A stretch of DNA of 64,000 nucleotides from Bradyrhizobium sp. NP1 (GTDB lineage Bacteria; Pseudomonadota; Alphaproteobacteria; Rhizobiales; Xanthobacteraceae), in contig NZ_CP127385.1 in assembly GCF_030378205.1 (NCBI RefSeq), forward strand, positions 6,240,001 to 6,304,000, given 5' to 3'. Positions 1,259-63,241 of this stretch are shown in pieces; positions within the stretch are counted from its first letter, which is position 1, and each line of letters opens with the position of its first letter. A program made the translations under genes and the position numbers. The notes under the pieces were generated by a model, which saw only the letters and a list, made by a program, of their open reading frames with translations, made no database searches and was not told the DNA's origin.

Positions 1259-1424
1259 CCAGTGCCGCCGATTTGAAGTTCCTGCTCCCCTGCGGCAAGT
1301 TCAATCCAGGAACTTCAAATCGAAAGCGGCACTGGTATCATCGATTTCGCTAGTGCCCTTTGCTTTCCGAAGTTCGCACAGAGGCTGCTGCGACGGATCG
1401 CGAACTTCGGAAAGCGGGCACTAG
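1259..1424 (+). repeat. Composite double-hairpin repeat, copy 1
   Basis: Two long hairpins stand 14 bp apart. Hairpin 1 (1259-1335) pairs CCAGTGCCGC-CGATTTGAAG... with its complement ending GCGGCACTGG, leaving an unpaired AAA in the inner arm. Hairpin 2 (1350-1424) pairs CTAGTGCCC-TTT-GCTTTCC... with GGAAAGCGGGCACTAG, leaving an unpaired TTT in its inner arm. The two hairpins are inverted relatives of each other. The same arrangement occurs at 44506-44671 and 63079-63241. The element fills most of the 312-base gap between the divergent genes; I see no gene in that gap. Confidence 0.85.
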
Positions 1425-5717: not shown

Positions 5718-7541
5718 ATGTTCGAAGCCCACTTCCAGACTTTCGAGGAGCCCGAGACCGGCATCGCGCTGGCGTCGCGGCTCTCCGCCTTCCGCGAGGA
5801 ATTGACCCGGCGCAAGCTGTCGGGCTTCGTCGTCCCGCGCGCCGACCAGCAGCAGAACGAATATGTCGCACCTTCCGAGGAGCGGCTGGCCTGGCTGACC
5901 GGCTTCACCGGCTCGGCGGGCCTGGCGATCGTGCTGGCGCACGAGGCGGCCCTCTTTGTCGACGGCCGCTACACGCTGCAGGCGGCAAAGCAGGTCGATA
6001 CCAAGGCCTGGACGGTCGAGTCCCTGATCGATCCGCCGCCGGAGACCTGGTTGACGAAACATCTGAAGGCCGGTGACCGCCTCGGATTCGATCCCTGGCT
6101 GCACACATCGACGGCGGCCGAGCGGCTGGCGGCCGCCTGCGCCAAGGCCGGCGCCGAACTGGTTGCGGTGGACAGCAATCCGCTCGATTCGGTGTGGACC
6201 GAGCGCCCGCCGCCCCCGCTTGCCCCCGTCACCATCCATGGCGCGCAGTTTTCCGGTGAGACGGAGAAGGAAAAGCTGGCGCGCATCCACGCCGAGATCG
6301 CGCGGCTCGGCGTCGACGCGCTGGTGCTCTCGGACAGCCATGCCGTTGCCTGGGCCTTCAACATCCGCGGCGCCGATGTCGCCCATACCCCGCTGCCGCT
6401 CTCCTATGCGCTGGTGCCGAAGGACGGCCGCCCGACCATCTTCATCGACCATCGCAAGCTGTCGAACGCCGCGCGCGACCATCTCGAACAATCCGGCGAC
6501 GTCCGCGAGCCGGAAGCGCTGACGGCCGAACTGACCGCGCTGGCGCAACGCGGCGGCAAGGTCGCGCTCGATGCCGCCACCGCCGCCGATGCGCTGAGCC
6601 GGCTGATCATTTCGGCCGGCGGCAAGGTGGAGCGCGGCAGCGATCCCGTCGCGCTGCTCAAGGCCGCCAAGAACCCCACCGAGATCGCGGGCACGCGCAG
6701 CGCGCACCGGCGCGACGCGGTGGCGCTGGCGCGCTTCCTCGCCTGGATCGACCGCGAGGCGCCCTCGGGCGCGCTGACCGAGATCGACACGGTGGAAGCG
6801 CTGGAGACGTTCCGCCGCGAGACCGGCGCGCTGAAGGACGTCTCGTTCCCCACCATCGCCGGCACCGGGCCGAACGGCGCCATCGTGCACTACCGCGTCA
6901 CCCGCAAGAGCAACCGCCGCATCGTGCGCGGCGACCTGCTGCTGATCGATTCCGGCGCGCAATACGAGGACGGCACCACCGACGTCACCCGCACCATCGC
7001 GATCGGCGAGCCGACCGCGGAGATGCGCGACCGCTTCACCCGGGTGCTGCGTGGCCATATCGCGATCGCGCGCGCGATCTTCCCCGACGGCACCACCGGC
7101 GCGCAGCTCGACACGCTGGCGCGGCAGTTCCTCTGGCAGGCCGGTATCGACTTCGAGCACGGCACCGGCCACGGCGTCGGCAGCTATCTCTCGGTGCATG
7201 AAGGCCCGGCGCGGATCTCGAAGCTCGGCACCACGCCGCTGAAGCGCGGCATGATCCTGTCCAACGAGCCCGGCTACTACAAGGCCGACGCCTACGGCAT
7301 CCGGATCGAGAACCTGGAGCTCGTCGTCGCAGTCGATATTTCGGGCGGCGAAAAACCGATGAATGCCTTCGAGACGCTGACGCTGGCGCCGATCGATCGC
7401 CGGCTGATCGATGTGGCGATGCTGAGCAAGAACGAACGCGACTGGCTCAACGCCTATCACGCCCGCGTGGCGGCCGAGGTCGGCCCGCAGCTCGACGACG
7501 CGACAAAGGCCTGGCTCGACCAGGCGACCGCGCCGCTCTGA
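5718..7541 (+). CDS. Xaa-Pro aminopeptidase, M24B family (aminopeptidase P)
   Basis: A metallopeptidase that removes an N-terminal residue ahead of proline. The 607-residue protein has two creatinase-like N-terminal domains (for example RLAWLTGFTGSAGLAIV) and a C-terminal pita-bread domain. The dinuclear metal ligands are visible: Asp in LLLIDSGAQY, Asp in TTDVTRT, His in GTGHGVGSYLSVHEGP, Glu in ILSNEPGYY and Glu in GIRIENLELV. The frame is open far upstream, but the ATG at 5718 gives the usual MFEAHFQTFE start and family length (about 600 residues). It is probably cytoplasmic and monocistronic. Confidence 0.93.
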   Translation: MFEAHFQTFEEPETGIALASRLSAFREELTRRKLSGFVVPRADQQQNEYVAPSEERLAWLTGFTGSAGLAIVLAHEAALFVDGRYTLQAAKQVDTKAWTVESLIDPPPETWLTKHLKAGDRLGFDPWLHTSTAAERLAAACAKAGAELVAVDSNPLDSVWTERPPPPLAPVTIHGAQFSGETEKEKLARIHAEIARLGVDALVLSDSHAVAWAFNIRGADVAHTPLPLSYALVPKDGRPTIFIDHRKLSNAARDHLEQSGDVREPEALTAELTALAQRGGKVALDAATAADALSRLIISAGGKVERGSDPVALLKAAKNPTEIAGTRSAHRRDAVALARFLAWIDREAPSGALTEIDTVEALETFRRETGALKDVSFPTIAGTGPNGAIVHYRVTRKSNRRIVRGDLLLIDSGAQYEDGTTDVTRTIAIGEPTAEMRDRFTRVLRGHIAIARAIFPDGTTGAQLDTLARQFLWQAGIDFEHGTGHGVGSYLSVHEGPARISKLGTTPLKRGMILSNEPGYYKADAYGIRIENLELVVAVDISGGEKPMNAFETLTLAPIDRRLIDVAMLSKNERDWLNAYHARVAAEVGPQLDDATKAWLDQATAPL

Positions 7542-13119: not shown

Positions 13120-13294
13120 GAGAGACAAGCCCCACCAGTGTGGCGGATCAGAAGCGCGCTTCGTCTCCGCCGCCATTCTTCCAAGAGAACTTCGGGATCA
13201 AAATCGCACCGGACCGTGAAGACCGCCAGTGCCGTCGGATCGAAGCTCGCTTGCGCGGATGCAGCGAGACCGCACGAAGCCGGGATCCGGAAGA

Positions 13295-14176
13295 CTAGCC
13301 CAGGCCGATCTTCTTGAAGGCCTTGCTCATCCAGGAGCCCTGATTCTCGCTCGGCTCGACGCCGCCGGATTTTACAAGATTATAGGCGTCCTTGTACCAG
13401 CGGCTGTCGGGAAAATTGTGCCCGAGCACGGCGGCCGCGGTCTGCGCCTCGCCGACGATGCCGATCGCCAGATAGGCCTCGGTGAGGCGGAACAGCGCCT
13501 CCTCGACATGGCGCGTGGTCTGGTACTGCGTCACCACCGTCTTGAAACGGTTGATGGCGGCGGTGTAGTCGCGCTTGCCCATGTAGTAGCGGCCGACCGT
13601 CATCTCGCGGCCGGCGAGCTGGTCGCGCGCGCCTTCGAGCTTGGCCTTGGCGCTGATGGCATATTCCGAGGTCGGATATTTGCGGACCACTTCCTCGAGC
13701 GCCGCGATCGCCTTCTCGGTGCGGCCCTGGTCGCGGGTGACGTCGGGAATCTGGTCGTAATGCGAGGCCGCGATCAAATACTGCGCATAGGCCGCGTCGG
13801 GACTGCCGGGATGCAGCGTCACGTAACGGCTGGCGGCGCCGATGCAGCTGTCATAGTCGCCGGACTGATAGAAGGAATAGGCCGACATCAAAAGCGATTT
13901 GCGCGCCCAGTCCGAGTAGGGATGCTGGCGGTCGACTTCCTCGAATTTCTTCGACGCCGCCTTCGCATCCTTGCGCTCGTTCATCAGGTACAAGCCCTCA
14001 TTGTAGAGCTTGTCCGCGGGCTCATCGACGAAGGTGTCGTCCTTCGCCATGAACTTGTCCCACAGCGCGCCGGTGCCGCAGCCGCCAAGTGGCAGCGCCA
14101 GCAGAACGAGAGCCCCGGCGAGCCGCAGCCCTGCCGATGCCCTGCGCGATTCACGCATCCTACGCTGTGCCGACAT
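13295..14176 (-). CDS. bamD: Outer membrane protein assembly factor BamD
   Basis: BamD is the lipoprotein of the BAM complex that folds beta-barrel proteins into the outer membrane. The 293-residue protein has a signal peptide with lipobox LPLGGC (acylated Cys33) and then five TPR-like helical repeats, including KKFEEVDRQHPYSDWARKS and the repeats around YKDAYNLVKSG. Length and sequence fit alphaproteobacterial BamD (also called ComL or YfiO). It is read after lpxC on the same strand, with 272 bases between them that contain no gene, and ahead of recN. Confidence 0.96.
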   Translation of the reverse strand: MSAQRRMRESRRASAGLRLAGALVLLALPLGGCGTGALWDKFMAKDDTFVDEPADKLYNEGLYLMNERKDAKAASKKFEEVDRQHPYSDWARKSLLMSAYSFYQSGDYDSCIGAASRYVTLHPGSPDAAYAQYLIAASHYDQIPDVTRDQGRTEKAIAALEEVVRKYPTSEYAISAKAKLEGARDQLAGREMTVGRYYMGKRDYTAAINRFKTVVTQYQTTRHVEEALFRLTEAYLAIGIVGEAQTAAAVLGHNFPDSRWYKDAYNLVKSGGVEPSENQGSWMSKAFKKIGLG

Positions 14177-38928: not shown

Positions 38929-39370
38929 GGGGCGTCAGTCGGCCGGACGGCCGCTCCGGCAAGCGCCGAAAGGCCGCCGGGGAGGAAAGTCCGGGCTCCA
39001 TCGACATGCGGTGCCGGATAACATCCGGCGGGGGCGACCCCAGGGAAAGTGCCACAGAGAACGAACCGCCCGCCTTTGCCTTCGGGCTTTGGCGGGTAAG
39101 GGTGAAAAGGTGCGGTAAGAGCGCACCGCGGCTCCGGCAACGGGGCCGGCATGGTAAACCCCACCGGGAGCAAGACCGAATAGGGACGGCAACGCGGGCA
39201 GTTCGCGAAAGCGACAACGTCCGCGGGAGCGATGTCAGGCTCGCTGTCCGGGTAGGTTGCCCGAGGCCATGTGCGAACATGGCCCCAGAGGAATGGCCGT
39301 CACGTATCGGCTCGCGCAAGCGGGGCGGTGCCCTACAGAACCCGGCTTACAGGCCGGCTGATGCTCTAAA
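38929..39370 (+). ncRNA. rnpB: RNase P RNA, bacterial class A
   Basis: The catalytic RNA that matures tRNA 5' ends. The universally conserved GAGGAAAGTCCGGGCTCC is at about 38981-38998 and the matching 3' block ACAGAACCCGGCTTACAGG at about 39335-39353. P1 is formed by GGGCGTCAGTCGGCC (38930-38944) and GGCCGGCTGATGCTC (39352-39366), pairing throughout with G-U wobbles. AGGGAAAGTGCCACAGAGA and GGTAAACCCCACCGGGAGCAA are further class A blocks. A TTGACG word at 38900-38905 may be the -35 element. End points are good to within about 10 bases. Confidence 0.96.
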
Positions 39371-44505: not shown

Positions 44506-44671
44506 CTGGTGCGGCGGTTCAGAAGTCCGCATCATTCTGACCCACGAGTTCGCAATGCGGACTTCTGAACCAAAGCCGCACCAGGTCTATAATTTGCTGG
44601 TGTCCTTCAATTTCGAAGTTCGCAAGGGAGGATGCCGCGGAATGATGCGAACTTCGGAATTGGGACACTAG
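44506..44671 (+). repeat. Composite double-hairpin repeat, copy 2
   Basis: Hairpin 1 (44506-44584) pairs CTGGTGCGGC-GGTTCAGAAG... with ...CTGAACC-AAA-GCCGCACCAG, the AAA being extra in the inner arm. The spacer is GTCTATAATTTG. Hairpin 2 (44597-44671) pairs CTGGTGTCC-TTC-AATTTCG... with ...CGGAATTGGGACACTAG, the extra TTC again in the inner arm. Total 166 bp, as in copy 1. It fills the gap between the TetR and TauE genes, and its last base is the first base of the likely TauE start codon. Confidence 0.88.
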
Positions 44672-45411
44672 TGGAAACGTCCGCCTATGCGGTTCTGCTG
44701 TTCGGCGCGCTGGCCGGCGGCTTCATTTCCGGCCTCGCCGGGTTCGGCACCGCGCTGATGGCGCTCGGCATCTGGCTCTTTGTGCTGCCGCCGTCGCTTG
44801 CGGTGCCGCTGGTGCTGAGCTGCTCGGTGATCGCCCAGAGCCTGACCCTGCCCTCGATGTGGAAGGATTTCGATCTCTCGCTGGTCTGGCCGTTCCTGAT
44901 CGGCGGGCTCGCCGGGGTGCCGCTCGGCACGCTCCTGATCGCGCATGCCGACCCTGCCGTCTTCAAGCTGACGATCGGCGTGTTCCTGGTGGTGTTTCCG
45001 GTCGTGCTGCTGCTGCAGCGGCGGCCGATGGCGTTCCGCTTCGGCGGCAGGCTCGCCGACGGCGCGATCGGATTCGCCGGCGGCATCATGGGCGGGCTCG
45101 CGGGCCTTTCCGGGCCGCTGCCGATCCTGTGGGCGAGCGTGCGCGGCTGGGGCAAGCATGAGCGGCGCGGCGTGTTCCAGATCTACAACTGGACGGTGCT
45201 GCTGACGGCGCTCTGCCTGCAGATCGGCTCCGGCCTCGTCGAGCGGCGGGTGATCTGGCTGATCCTGCTCGCCTTTCCCGGCACGCTGATCGGCACCCGG
45301 CTCGGCGCGCGGGTCTATCGCGCGCTCAGAGACCGCCATTTCGCCGACGTGGCGTTCGTGCTGTTGTTTTTTTCCGGTGTTGGCCTGGTCTGGAACAGCC
45401 TCGCGCGTTGA
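44671..45411 (+). CDS. Sulfite exporter TauE/SafE family membrane protein
   Basis: A 246-residue membrane protein with about eight helices and the two TauE repeats: GALAGGFISGLAGFGTALMA near residues 10-30 and GGIMGGLAGLSGPLPILWA in the second half. The family exports sulfite or organosulfonates, or takes up small acids; the substrate here is unknown. The GTG at 44671 (reading METSAYAVLLFG) is preferred because an in-frame ATG at 44632 lies wholly within the hairpin repeat. With that start the repeat provides the ribosome site region, an odd arrangement. It is probably monocistronic. Confidence 0.85.
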   Translation: METSAYAVLLFGALAGGFISGLAGFGTALMALGIWLFVLPPSLAVPLVLSCSVIAQSLTLPSMWKDFDLSLVWPFLIGGLAGVPLGTLLIAHADPAVFKLTIGVFLVVFPVVLLLQRRPMAFRFGGRLADGAIGFAGGIMGGLAGLSGPLPILWASVRGWGKHERRGVFQIYNWTVLLTALCLQIGSGLVERRVIWLILLAFPGTLIGTRLGARVYRALRDRHFADVAFVLLFFSGVGLVWNSLAR

Positions 45412-62860: not shown

Positions 62861-63078
62861 ATGCCAGTCCTCCCTAACGCGACAGCCAACAATGGGCGGC
62901 GAGCGTTGTTGCCGGCAACTGTGGCGGGCGTACGCCGGCAAGATGAAGATCGAAGGTTGGGTGAGCGAACCGTTAACCCGATTGGAGAGCAAGCCGAAGT
63001 TGCAGGCGAGCGGTCCGATTCTAACACACGCCTCCCATCAGGGAGGCACGTTTGCGAATGTTAGAATCAAAAGCTCCA

Positions 63079-63241
63079 CGAGTGTCCCGGATCCGAAGTT
63101 CGTATCATTTGGCGGGCCACGCTCTTTTGCGAACTTCGGGTCCGGAAGGACACTAGCAAATTTATGATTCTGGTGCGGTTTTGGTCCCGAAGTTCTCTTG
63201 ACGAACTCCGGCACAAATGAAGAGAACTTTCGAACCACTAG
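63079..63241 (-). repeat. Composite double-hairpin repeat, copy 3 (inverted orientation)
   Basis: Hairpin 2-type (63079-63156) pairs CGAGTGTCC-CGGATCCG... with ...CGGGTCCGG-AAG-GACACTAG. Hairpin 1-type (63170-63241) pairs CTGGTGCGG-TTTT-GGTCCCGAAG... with ...GAACTTTCGAACCACTAG, its right arm about 8 bases shorter. The spacer CAAATTTATGATT is the reverse complement of a sequence matching the other spacers. Total 163 bp. The 772-base region 62861-63632 that contains it has no convincing gene; an open frame 63038-63550 on the minus strand is rejected. Confidence 0.82.

What the first reader, a model, noticed from the sequence alone, without database searches (positions are those of the whole stretch)
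1259..1424. A three-copy composite element built of two inverted, bulged hairpins with covarying stems
Seen directly: at 1259-1424, 44506-44671 and 63079-63241 there are units of 166, 166 and 163 bp. Each is a hairpin of 72-79 bp, a 12-14 bp spacer and a second hairpin. Outer ends are C(T/C)(A/G)GTG and CACTAG. In each hairpin a three-base insert (AAA or TTT/TTC) sits only in the arm next to the spacer, so the two hairpins are inverted relatives. Stem sequences differ among copies yet stay complementary (GCTTTCC with GGAAAGC, AATTTCG with CGGAATT, CGGACCCG with CGGATCCG). The core GAAGTTC is shared, loops share AGTTC, and spacers share an ATCATNNATTT-like word. Copy 3 lies in the opposite orientation. 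Inference: a mosaic mobile palindrome (BIME- or MITE-like), or a structured RNA/DNA site kept by selection. I do not know of a description of this exact architecture.
Basis: seen in the sequence. Interest (0 to 1): 0.72.

Follow-up and report, generated by a model that had tools for sequence, protein, structure and literature searches.

The report
Double-hairpin miniature transposon, IS630 type
The three look-alike DNA pieces are copies of a tiny "hitch-hiking" jumping element, made of two facing hairpins, that has spread to well over a hundred places in this bacterial chromosome and occurs, with the same unusual design, in several other groups of its class.

Summary
The three units are copies of a ~165-bp two-hairpin element: 149 covariance-model matches in this 7.71-Mb chromosome (150 candidates scored), and matches in 14 of 288 other genomes sampled from the class. 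Best explained as a non-autonomous IS630/Tc1-mariner-type MITE. Its outer ends resemble IS630 terminal repeats (CTAGTG..., core GAAGTTC at offset 16). Copies lie between CTAGs; relatives lack the element at two sites, with one CTAG there in most. Seven near-identical copies in a relative show recent spread. The window's genome has no IS630 transposase above the family cut-off, so there the copies look orphaned. Each hairpin pairs an intact outer repeat with an inner repeat stretched by about 3 nt at one position. I infer that the stretch disables the inner ends so that the whole unit moves; untested. Stem covariation is strong; a test for RNA-type wobble pairs was negative in the conserved stems but depends on the pairs chosen. 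Not a GTAG-REP/BIME of a RAYT. Closest described: RUP (an IS630 MITE) and two-armed CIR repeats. New variant of a known kind.

The parts
1259..1424 (+). copy 1 of the double-hairpin MITE (hairpin B, spacer, hairpin A)
   Evidence: (155.6 bits)
1259..1335 (+). hairpin B of copy 1: outer arm CCAGTGCCGCCGATTTGAAGTTC, inner arm with AAA insert
1336..1349 (+). spacer of copy 1 (TATCATCGATTTCG)
1350..1424 (+). hairpin A of copy 1: inner arm with TTT insert, outer arm ending GGGCACTAG
44506..44671 (+). copy 2 (162.5 bits); abuts the likely start codon of a TauE/SafE gene
44506..44584 (+). hairpin B of copy 2
44585..44596 (+). spacer of copy 2 (GTCTATAATTTG)
44597..44671 (+). hairpin A of copy 2
63079..63241 (-). 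copy 3, opposite orientation (130.1 bits); B hairpin decayed, about 5 nt missing near its outer end in the alignment
63079..63156 (-). hairpin A of copy 3
63157..63169 (-). spacer of copy 3
63170..63241 (-). hairpin B of copy 3 (decayed)
13135..13298 (+). fourth, strongly decayed match to the element; does not fold as two clean hairpins
   Evidence: (37.1 bits, E 7e-7)

Best explanation
A ~165-bp non-autonomous transposon (MITE) of the IS630/Tc1-mariner type. SHOWN: the two outer 23-nt arms resemble IS630 terminal inverted repeats facing inward; copies lie between CTAG sequences, and relatives lack the element at the two insertion sites examined, most with one CTAG there. INFERRED: an IS630-family transposase supplied in trans cuts at the two outer ends and pastes the unit into the TA of CTAG (the TA rule is from published IS630/ISY100 work, not shown here). 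SHOWN: each outer arm is backed by a complementary inner arm that carries mostly 3 (2-4) extra nt between the terminal block CTAGTGNNN and the GAAGTTC core. INFERRED: that stretch puts the two halves of the recognition site out of register, so the inner ends are not cut and the unit moves whole. SHOWN in the window's genome: no IS630 transposase above the family cut-off, and mostly diverged copies. INFERRED: the family there is an orphaned, decaying amplification.
For: Copy number: 149 matches, 150 candidates scored, a few overlapping. 134 distinct units of 150 bp or more read; 129 fold as two hairpins; CTAG at 83 (left) and 80 (right) of 134 outer ends; no base above 58 of 134 in the 8 nt outside. 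Insertion: G010 has 7 copies with 162-164 of 165 identical positions pairwise at different places. At 8757909 both flanks align to element-free loci of G003 (single CTAG) and G004 (CTTAAG). At 8123370, 6 of 8 element-free relatives read CTAG at the same place, G004 TCAG and one TTAG. Tandem copies share exactly 4 bases, e.g. 261860-262025/262022-262187 and 6749-6917/6914-7082. Ends: the G015 IS (NF033545 E 1.3e-81, DDE_3) ends in CTAGTGTCCTGAATCAGAAGTTC, 21/23 to a MITE end; a B. barranii plasmid IS630 has ends CTAGTGTGGTGGACCAGAAGTTC (21/23 to type B) and CTAATGTCCCGAGTCACAAGTTC (19/23 to type A). Core offset from CTAG: 16 in 16 of 16 IS ends typed in; MITE outer arms at 16 in B 117 of 123 and A 85 of 123 (34 had no recognisable core); inner arms at 16 in only 5 and 4 of 123, mostly 19 (ties broken toward 16).
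Against: The window's genome has no match to the G015 transposase; of its two weak matches to the IS630 model the one scanned has IS481-type domains. G006 has the element but no IS630 match. No IS630 was found whose ends equal a MITE's ends exactly, and among the few G010 IS630 loci scanned I found none with fitting end subtype for its young copies. One of the three G015 IS copies lacks CTAG at one end. The two B. barranii IS ends agree with each other only at 16 of 25. The element was nearly absent from plasmids (8 Roseibium/Labrenzia records with one query, none with another), where IS630 is common. Use of the outer repeats alone does not explain why the hairpins stay paired.
Confidence: 0.85

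Rival explanations
1. Repeats of REP/BIME type moved by a RAYT (Y1 HUH) transposase, as single-stranded hairpins.
For: Hairpins, high copy number; two PF01797 genes in the genome.
Against: No GTAG tag; no inverted repeat of this kind reported in the 1.5-kb flanks of the two RAYT-type genes; G010 and G004 carry the same young subfamily without any PF01797 match at E<=0.001; ends match a DDE (IS630) family.
Confidence: 0.04
2. A transcribed structured RNA or terminator-like element kept by selection on the RNA.
For: Strong covariation: 52 of 61 pairs have compensated cells; 87% standard pairs against 75% in shuffles. With all 61 pairs GT/TG exceeds AC/CA, 368 to 267 (p 7e-5), and with 48 pairs 191 to 153 (p 0.046).
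Against: In the 47 conserved stem pairs GT/TG 144 against AC/CA 151, p 0.73; 13 of the 14 pairs left out are loop-side positions of one unit's fold and the 14th sits at the bulge. No Rfam match; convergent 11, divergent 10, tandem 10 of 31 crude contexts.
Confidence: 0.08
3. The described CIR repeats (Caulobacter CcrM-associated intergenic repeats): two arms and a linker with a GANTC methylation site in one loop.
For: Same two-arm-plus-linker layout in the same class, TA at the termini (review PMC2229807, section 7 and passages); shorter 119-133-bp forms in G196 and G414.
Against: CIR is given there as about 110 bp, without TIRs and with a conserved GANTC; here mostly 164-169 bp, and GANTC is in the B loop of only 25 of 129 own units (10 expected) and 14 of 64 others (5 expected), in the A loop of 3 and 0. 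CIR sequences could not be compared: the original paper is not held.
Confidence: 0.15
4. Hairpin pairing is kept only mutationally (hairpin-templated correction), with no function of the hairpins.
For: Stem pairs are swapped wholesale between subfamilies.
Against: Such correction should also erase the 2-4-nt bulge, which stays at one place in the inner arms of other genera too.
Confidence: 0.3

Closest known systems
RUP (repeat unit of pneumococcus), a MITE of IS630-Spn1
   Same: Small, high copy number, ends like those of an IS630 element, TA-containing target (PMC2229807, passages).
   Different: 107 bp, 108 copies, 9-bp TIR in that review, which describes no two arms; here two hairpins with stretched inner repeats, found in several groups of Alphaproteobacteria.
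CIR repeats (Chen and Shapiro 2003; seen only through the review PMC2229807)
   Same: Two long inverted-repeat arms joined by a linker, in Alphaproteobacteria; TA at the termini in the review's table.
   Different: About 110 bp, no TIR listed, a conserved GANTC in one loop, no mobilising IS named; here GANTC is not conserved and the ends are IS630-type.
GTAG/CGTC REPs and TIRtron repeats (PMC3733652, passages and section 16)
   Same: Palindromic repeats, some self-complementary and paired at short distance; REPs described in Bradyrhizobium among others.
   Different: Tyrosine (HUH) transposases (RAYT, TIRYT) and GTAG/CGTC tags; here CTAG at both ends and a DDE-type partner.
IS630 and ISY100 insertion sequences
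   Same: Single transposase, TA target (ISY100: abstract and passages of PMC2170065); preference for TA in CTAG (title of Tenzen and Ohtsubo 1991 in its reference list).
   Different: Autonomous; the related IS here is about 1.2 kb with simple ends, no hairpin partner arm.

Membership tests
MITE of IS630/Tc1-mariner type | terminal inverted repeats shared with an IS630 element | tested here: met
   up to 21/23, core offset 16 in outer arms and in all 16 IS ends compared
MITE of IS630/Tc1-mariner type | TA duplicated on insertion, CTAG preferred | tested here: inconclusive
   CTAG on both sides of copies; element-free relatives read CTAG at one site in 1 of 2 and at the other in 6 of 8; TA and CTAG duplication cannot be told apart in a CTAG target
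MITE of IS630/Tc1-mariner type | moved in trans by an IS630 transposase | not testable with these tools
   needs an assay; none above cut-off in this genome; 25 IS630-model matches, fragments included, in G010, which has young copies
GTAG REP / BIME (RAYT) | GTAG at one end | tested here: not met
   commonest end 4-mers are CTAG on both sides
GTAG REP / BIME (RAYT) | RAYT gene flanked by the same repeat | tested here: not met
   and G010 has no PF01797 match
CIR | two hairpin arms and a linker | tested here: met
   129 of 134, 64 of 68
CIR | conserved GANTC in the loop of one arm | tested here: not met
   25 of 129 and 14 of 64 in the B loop
CIR | about 110 bp | tested here: not met
   113 of 134 own units are 164-169 bp; 119-133 bp in the G196 and G414 units read
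CIR | sequence identity with CIR1-4 | not tested
   original paper not held
RUP | IS630-like ends and a TA-containing target | tested here: met
   (works like it)
RUP | the 107-bp pneumococcal sequence | not tested
   RUP sequence not fetched; size and host differ

The most novel reading that the evidence does not exclude
The palindromic, 3-nt-stretched inner repeats are not dead copies but working parts: each end is a pair of head-to-head transposase sites, one cuttable and one not, an inverted counterpart of the double sites of Sleeping-Beauty-type Tc1 elements (recalled, from no call). They would recruit the transposase and enforce whole-unit transposition, which would explain why pairing and bulge persist across the groups examined while the stems are rewritten.
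Probability: 0.35. Interest if true: 0.7.

Novelty: new variant of a known kind. Interest (0 to 1): 0.58.

Why it matters
It gives a candidate mobiliser (IS630) and a mechanism for a two-armed alphaproteobacterial repeat, a layout for which a 2007 review of CIR asked for more information on the mechanism of mobility (PMC2229807, section 7). It shows a conserved design rule (intact outer, stretched inner repeat) that can be tested with one transposase and four DNA ends. It also warns that strong stem covariation in bacterial intergenic DNA can come from a transposon and need not mean an RNA.

Tried and rejected
RAYT link: rejected. Rfam: nothing for the element at gathering threshold in the window (only RNase P) or at E<=0.1 in three loci. 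GANTC/CcrM loop site: about 2.5-fold enriched in the B loop, not conserved. Empty site of window copy 2: nearest relative 82% identical at that gene; the intergenic part is too different to align by eye. In one search, and for two loci, minus-strand loci were read at the wrong end; six of the former and both of the latter were re-read. In one search L453/L454 were read on the wrong strand, corrected. Exact IS630 partner among the 80 genome-contig loci: of 19 pattern matches outside full units I recognised no IS end; they are mostly truncated, hybrid or locus-edge pieces, and L362, with no partner hairpin in the bases held, was not followed up. Plasmids and phages: almost no copies with the queries used. 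Viral contigs: 6 stretches, not followed. A first alignment held a wrongly placed row (L013), dropped. A weak likeness of a third IS630 group (CTAGTACCCACTTT) is near the level of shuffled sequence and is not claimed. The wobble test left out 14 of 61 pairs; one search gives the other choices, so the RNA rival is raised from 0.06 to 0.08. Dropped before counts: 11 of 134 and 5 of 68 units without two clear terminal hairpins, 5 of 134 and 4 of 68 without two hairpins, 37 of 134 and 7 of 68 units whose outer arms lack GTG; alignment A5 holds 150 of 159 matches. The B/A end-difference pattern may be common descent and is not used as proof. In the genome contigs set the A outer end was fixed by the search pattern, so its 63 of 63 is by construction; the B end was not. 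Counts are lower bounds (capped or strictly filtered).

Full report
WHAT IS THERE. Each is hairpin B (72-79 nt), a 12-14-nt spacer and hairpin A (75-78 nt). Copies 1 and 2 fold with z -9.66 and -8.77, the worn copy 3 with z -3.37. The window is a stretch of a 7.71-Mb single-contig chromosome. A pattern for one arm has 73 matches in the chromosome against 3 for the reversed control. A covariance model from 15 copies has 149 matches among 150 candidates scored, a few of them overlapping. I read 129 sources holding most of these (loci, searched): 141 distinct non-overlapping units, 134 of them 150 bp or longer, 129 of 134 folding as two hairpins. The window holds a fourth, decayed match at 13135-13298.

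IT IS INSERTED DNA. The outer four bases are CTAG in 83 (left) and 80 (right) of 134 units, and no base exceeds 58 of 134 in the 8 nt outside. Genome G010 of the same genus has seven copies that differ pairwise at 1-3 of 165 positions, at seven places. For two of them I looked at relatives. At 8757909 both flanks align to G003 and G004 without the element; G003 reads a single CTAG and G004 CTTAAG. At 8123370 the element-free site reads CTAG at the same place in 6 of 8 relatives, TCAG in G004 and TTAG in one; the right flank aligns well, the left one less so. Neighbouring copies overlap by exactly four bases, e.g. 261860-262025 with 262022-262187 and 6749-6917 with 6914-7082, as expected if a copy enters the CTAG at the end of another.

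WHICH TRANSPOSASE. A pattern search in seven relatives gave 7 matches outside double hairpins, and 6 of them are ends, or pieces of ends, of one kind of IS. Because the pattern fixes 14 bases, such matches alone prove little (its reversed control gave 1-8 per strand and genome), but these lie exactly at IS ends. The G015 element is 1.2 kb with a 362-aa transposase scoring 1.3e-81 to NCBIfam IS630. Its ends are CTAGTGTCCTGAATCAGAAGTTC and CTAGTGTCCTGAACCAAAAGTTC; one of its three copies lacks CTAG on one side. Among eight plasmid relatives fetched, ends were found in six. The Bradyrhizobium barranii copy has one end 21/23 identical to a type-B MITE end and the other 19/23 to type A; the two agree with each other only at 16 of 25, but relatives' alignments stop at the same borders. 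In 16 IS630 loci scanned without the pattern, the G015 and G017 copies reach 21/23 at one end (the other end 15-20), a second group 16-18/23, and the other seven loci 14-17, against 13-15 for shuffled left flanks. IS630 prefers TA in CTAG (title in the reference list of PMC2170065) and ISY100 duplicates TA (abstract and passages of that paper).

THE DESIGN RULE. In all 16 IS ends compared, the GAAGTTC core (5-7 of 7 bases) begins 16 nt from the C of CTAG. In the MITE the outer arms keep this: 117 of 123 B arms, and 85 of 123 A arms with 34 showing no recognisable core. The inner arms do not: 5 and 4 of 123 at offset 16, the mode being 19 (inner ends were placed at the best CTAG-like 4-mer, ties in core position went to 16). 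In 63 of 68 units from other loci of the class, B outer arms are at 16 in 61, and inner arms at 16 in none. By folding, 99 of 129 own units have surplus unpaired bases on the spacer side in both hairpins. I infer that the stretch stops the transposase from using the inner ends. Hybrid single hairpins made of the two outer arms occur, which fits the outer arms being the ends that matter.

COVARIATION, AND IS IT RNA? 52 of 61 pairs carry compensated cells, and 87% of cells are standard pairs against 75% after shuffling (the structure came from one of the units, which favours it). If the transcript on one strand were selected, GT wobbles should outnumber AC mismatches. In 47 conserved stem pairs they do not: 144 against 151 of 6244 cells. 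The answer depends on the pairs taken: with the pair next to the bulge it is 191 to 153 (p 0.046), with all 61 pairs 368 to 267 (p 7e-5). The pairs left out are loop-side positions taken from a single unit's fold, plus the bulge pair, so I read the result as no clear sign of RNA selection, not as proof against it. No Rfam family matches. In 31 units with 1 kb on both sides, the longest flanking frames are convergent 11, divergent 10, tandem 10 (a crude measure).

DISTRIBUTION. Among 40 other genomes near the window's own, 10 of 24 of the genus and 0 of 16 of other families of the order match. In a class-wide sample 14 of 288 others match at 1e-8 under strict filters. 68 units of 150 bp or more lie in 64 of those 80 loci, and 64 of 68 fold as two hairpins. 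G196 and G414 have 119-133-bp forms with 3-4-nt loops and the same layout. On plasmids it is nearly absent with the two queries used.

THE WINDOW'S GENOME. No match to the G015 transposase was found (the IS630 family search, which rings in the relatives, serves as control). It has two weak matches to the IS630 model, below its cut-off, and the one I scanned has IS481-type domains. Nearest-neighbour identity among the 134 copies has median 0.89; 17 are at 0.95 or more. The family there thus seems orphaned. G006 too has the element without an IS630 match. G010, with young copies, has 25 IS630-model matches, fragments included, but I could not point to one whose ends fit.

COMPARISON WITH THE KNOWN. 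It works like RUP, the IS630 MITE of pneumococcus. Its layout is that of CIR, two arms and a linker (PMC2229807, section 7 and passages), but the conserved GANTC and the length of CIR are not met, and CIR sequences could not be compared. It is not a GTAG REP (PMC3733652, passages and section 16). A 2024 review of prokaryotic MITEs (PMC10969869, passages) mentions CIR and RUP; its text does not hold the words IS630, CTAG or Bradyrhizobium. My ten paper searches listed no description of this element that I recognised; subscription journals are mostly not held, so it may be in print elsewhere.

VERDICT. A real, widespread double-hairpin MITE of IS630 type: a known kind of thing in a new and puzzlingly regular form. 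What is shown: copies, insertion, IS630-like ends, stretched inner arms. What is inferred: transposase in trans, the blocking role of the stretch, any role of the hairpins.

Noticed in passing
window 44660-44690: The end of copy 2 abuts the TauE/SafE gene; the last G of its CTAG reads as the first base of a likely GTG start codon, where some relatives have TTG or GTG.
   Followed up: partly
window 63013-63078: Next to copy 3 lies another degenerate palindromic stretch (GATTCTAACA ... GCGAATGTTAGAATCAAAAGCTCCAC) that by eye resembles the AACATTC-core subfamily.
   Followed up: partly
window 13135-13298: Fourth, strongly decayed copy.
   Followed up: partly
L010, L327, L351, L369: Single hybrid hairpins made of a B outer arm and an A outer arm, mismatched in the stem: deletion derivatives that keep both outer ends.
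   Followed up: partly
97 of 134 own units and 61 of 68 units of loci L311-L390: The two outer ends of a unit agree at position 7 (0.84 and 0.90) but seldom at positions 8 and 9 (0.12/0.02 and 0.20/0.11), as if kept different.
   Followed up: partly
L031, L032: Two RAYT-type genes with very similar proteins, each with inverted repeats of another palindrome (GGGAATGCCGGG type) about 75 nt apart in the flank.
   Followed up: no
G196, G414 (L436-L441): Compact 119-133-bp forms with 3-4-nt loops and the same inner bulges; possibly the link to CIR repeats.
   Followed up: no
plasmid collection: The element is nearly absent from 72,556 plasmid records with two queries, although IS630 transposases are common there.
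   Followed up: no
window 38935-39365: RNase P RNA, class A.
   Followed up: no
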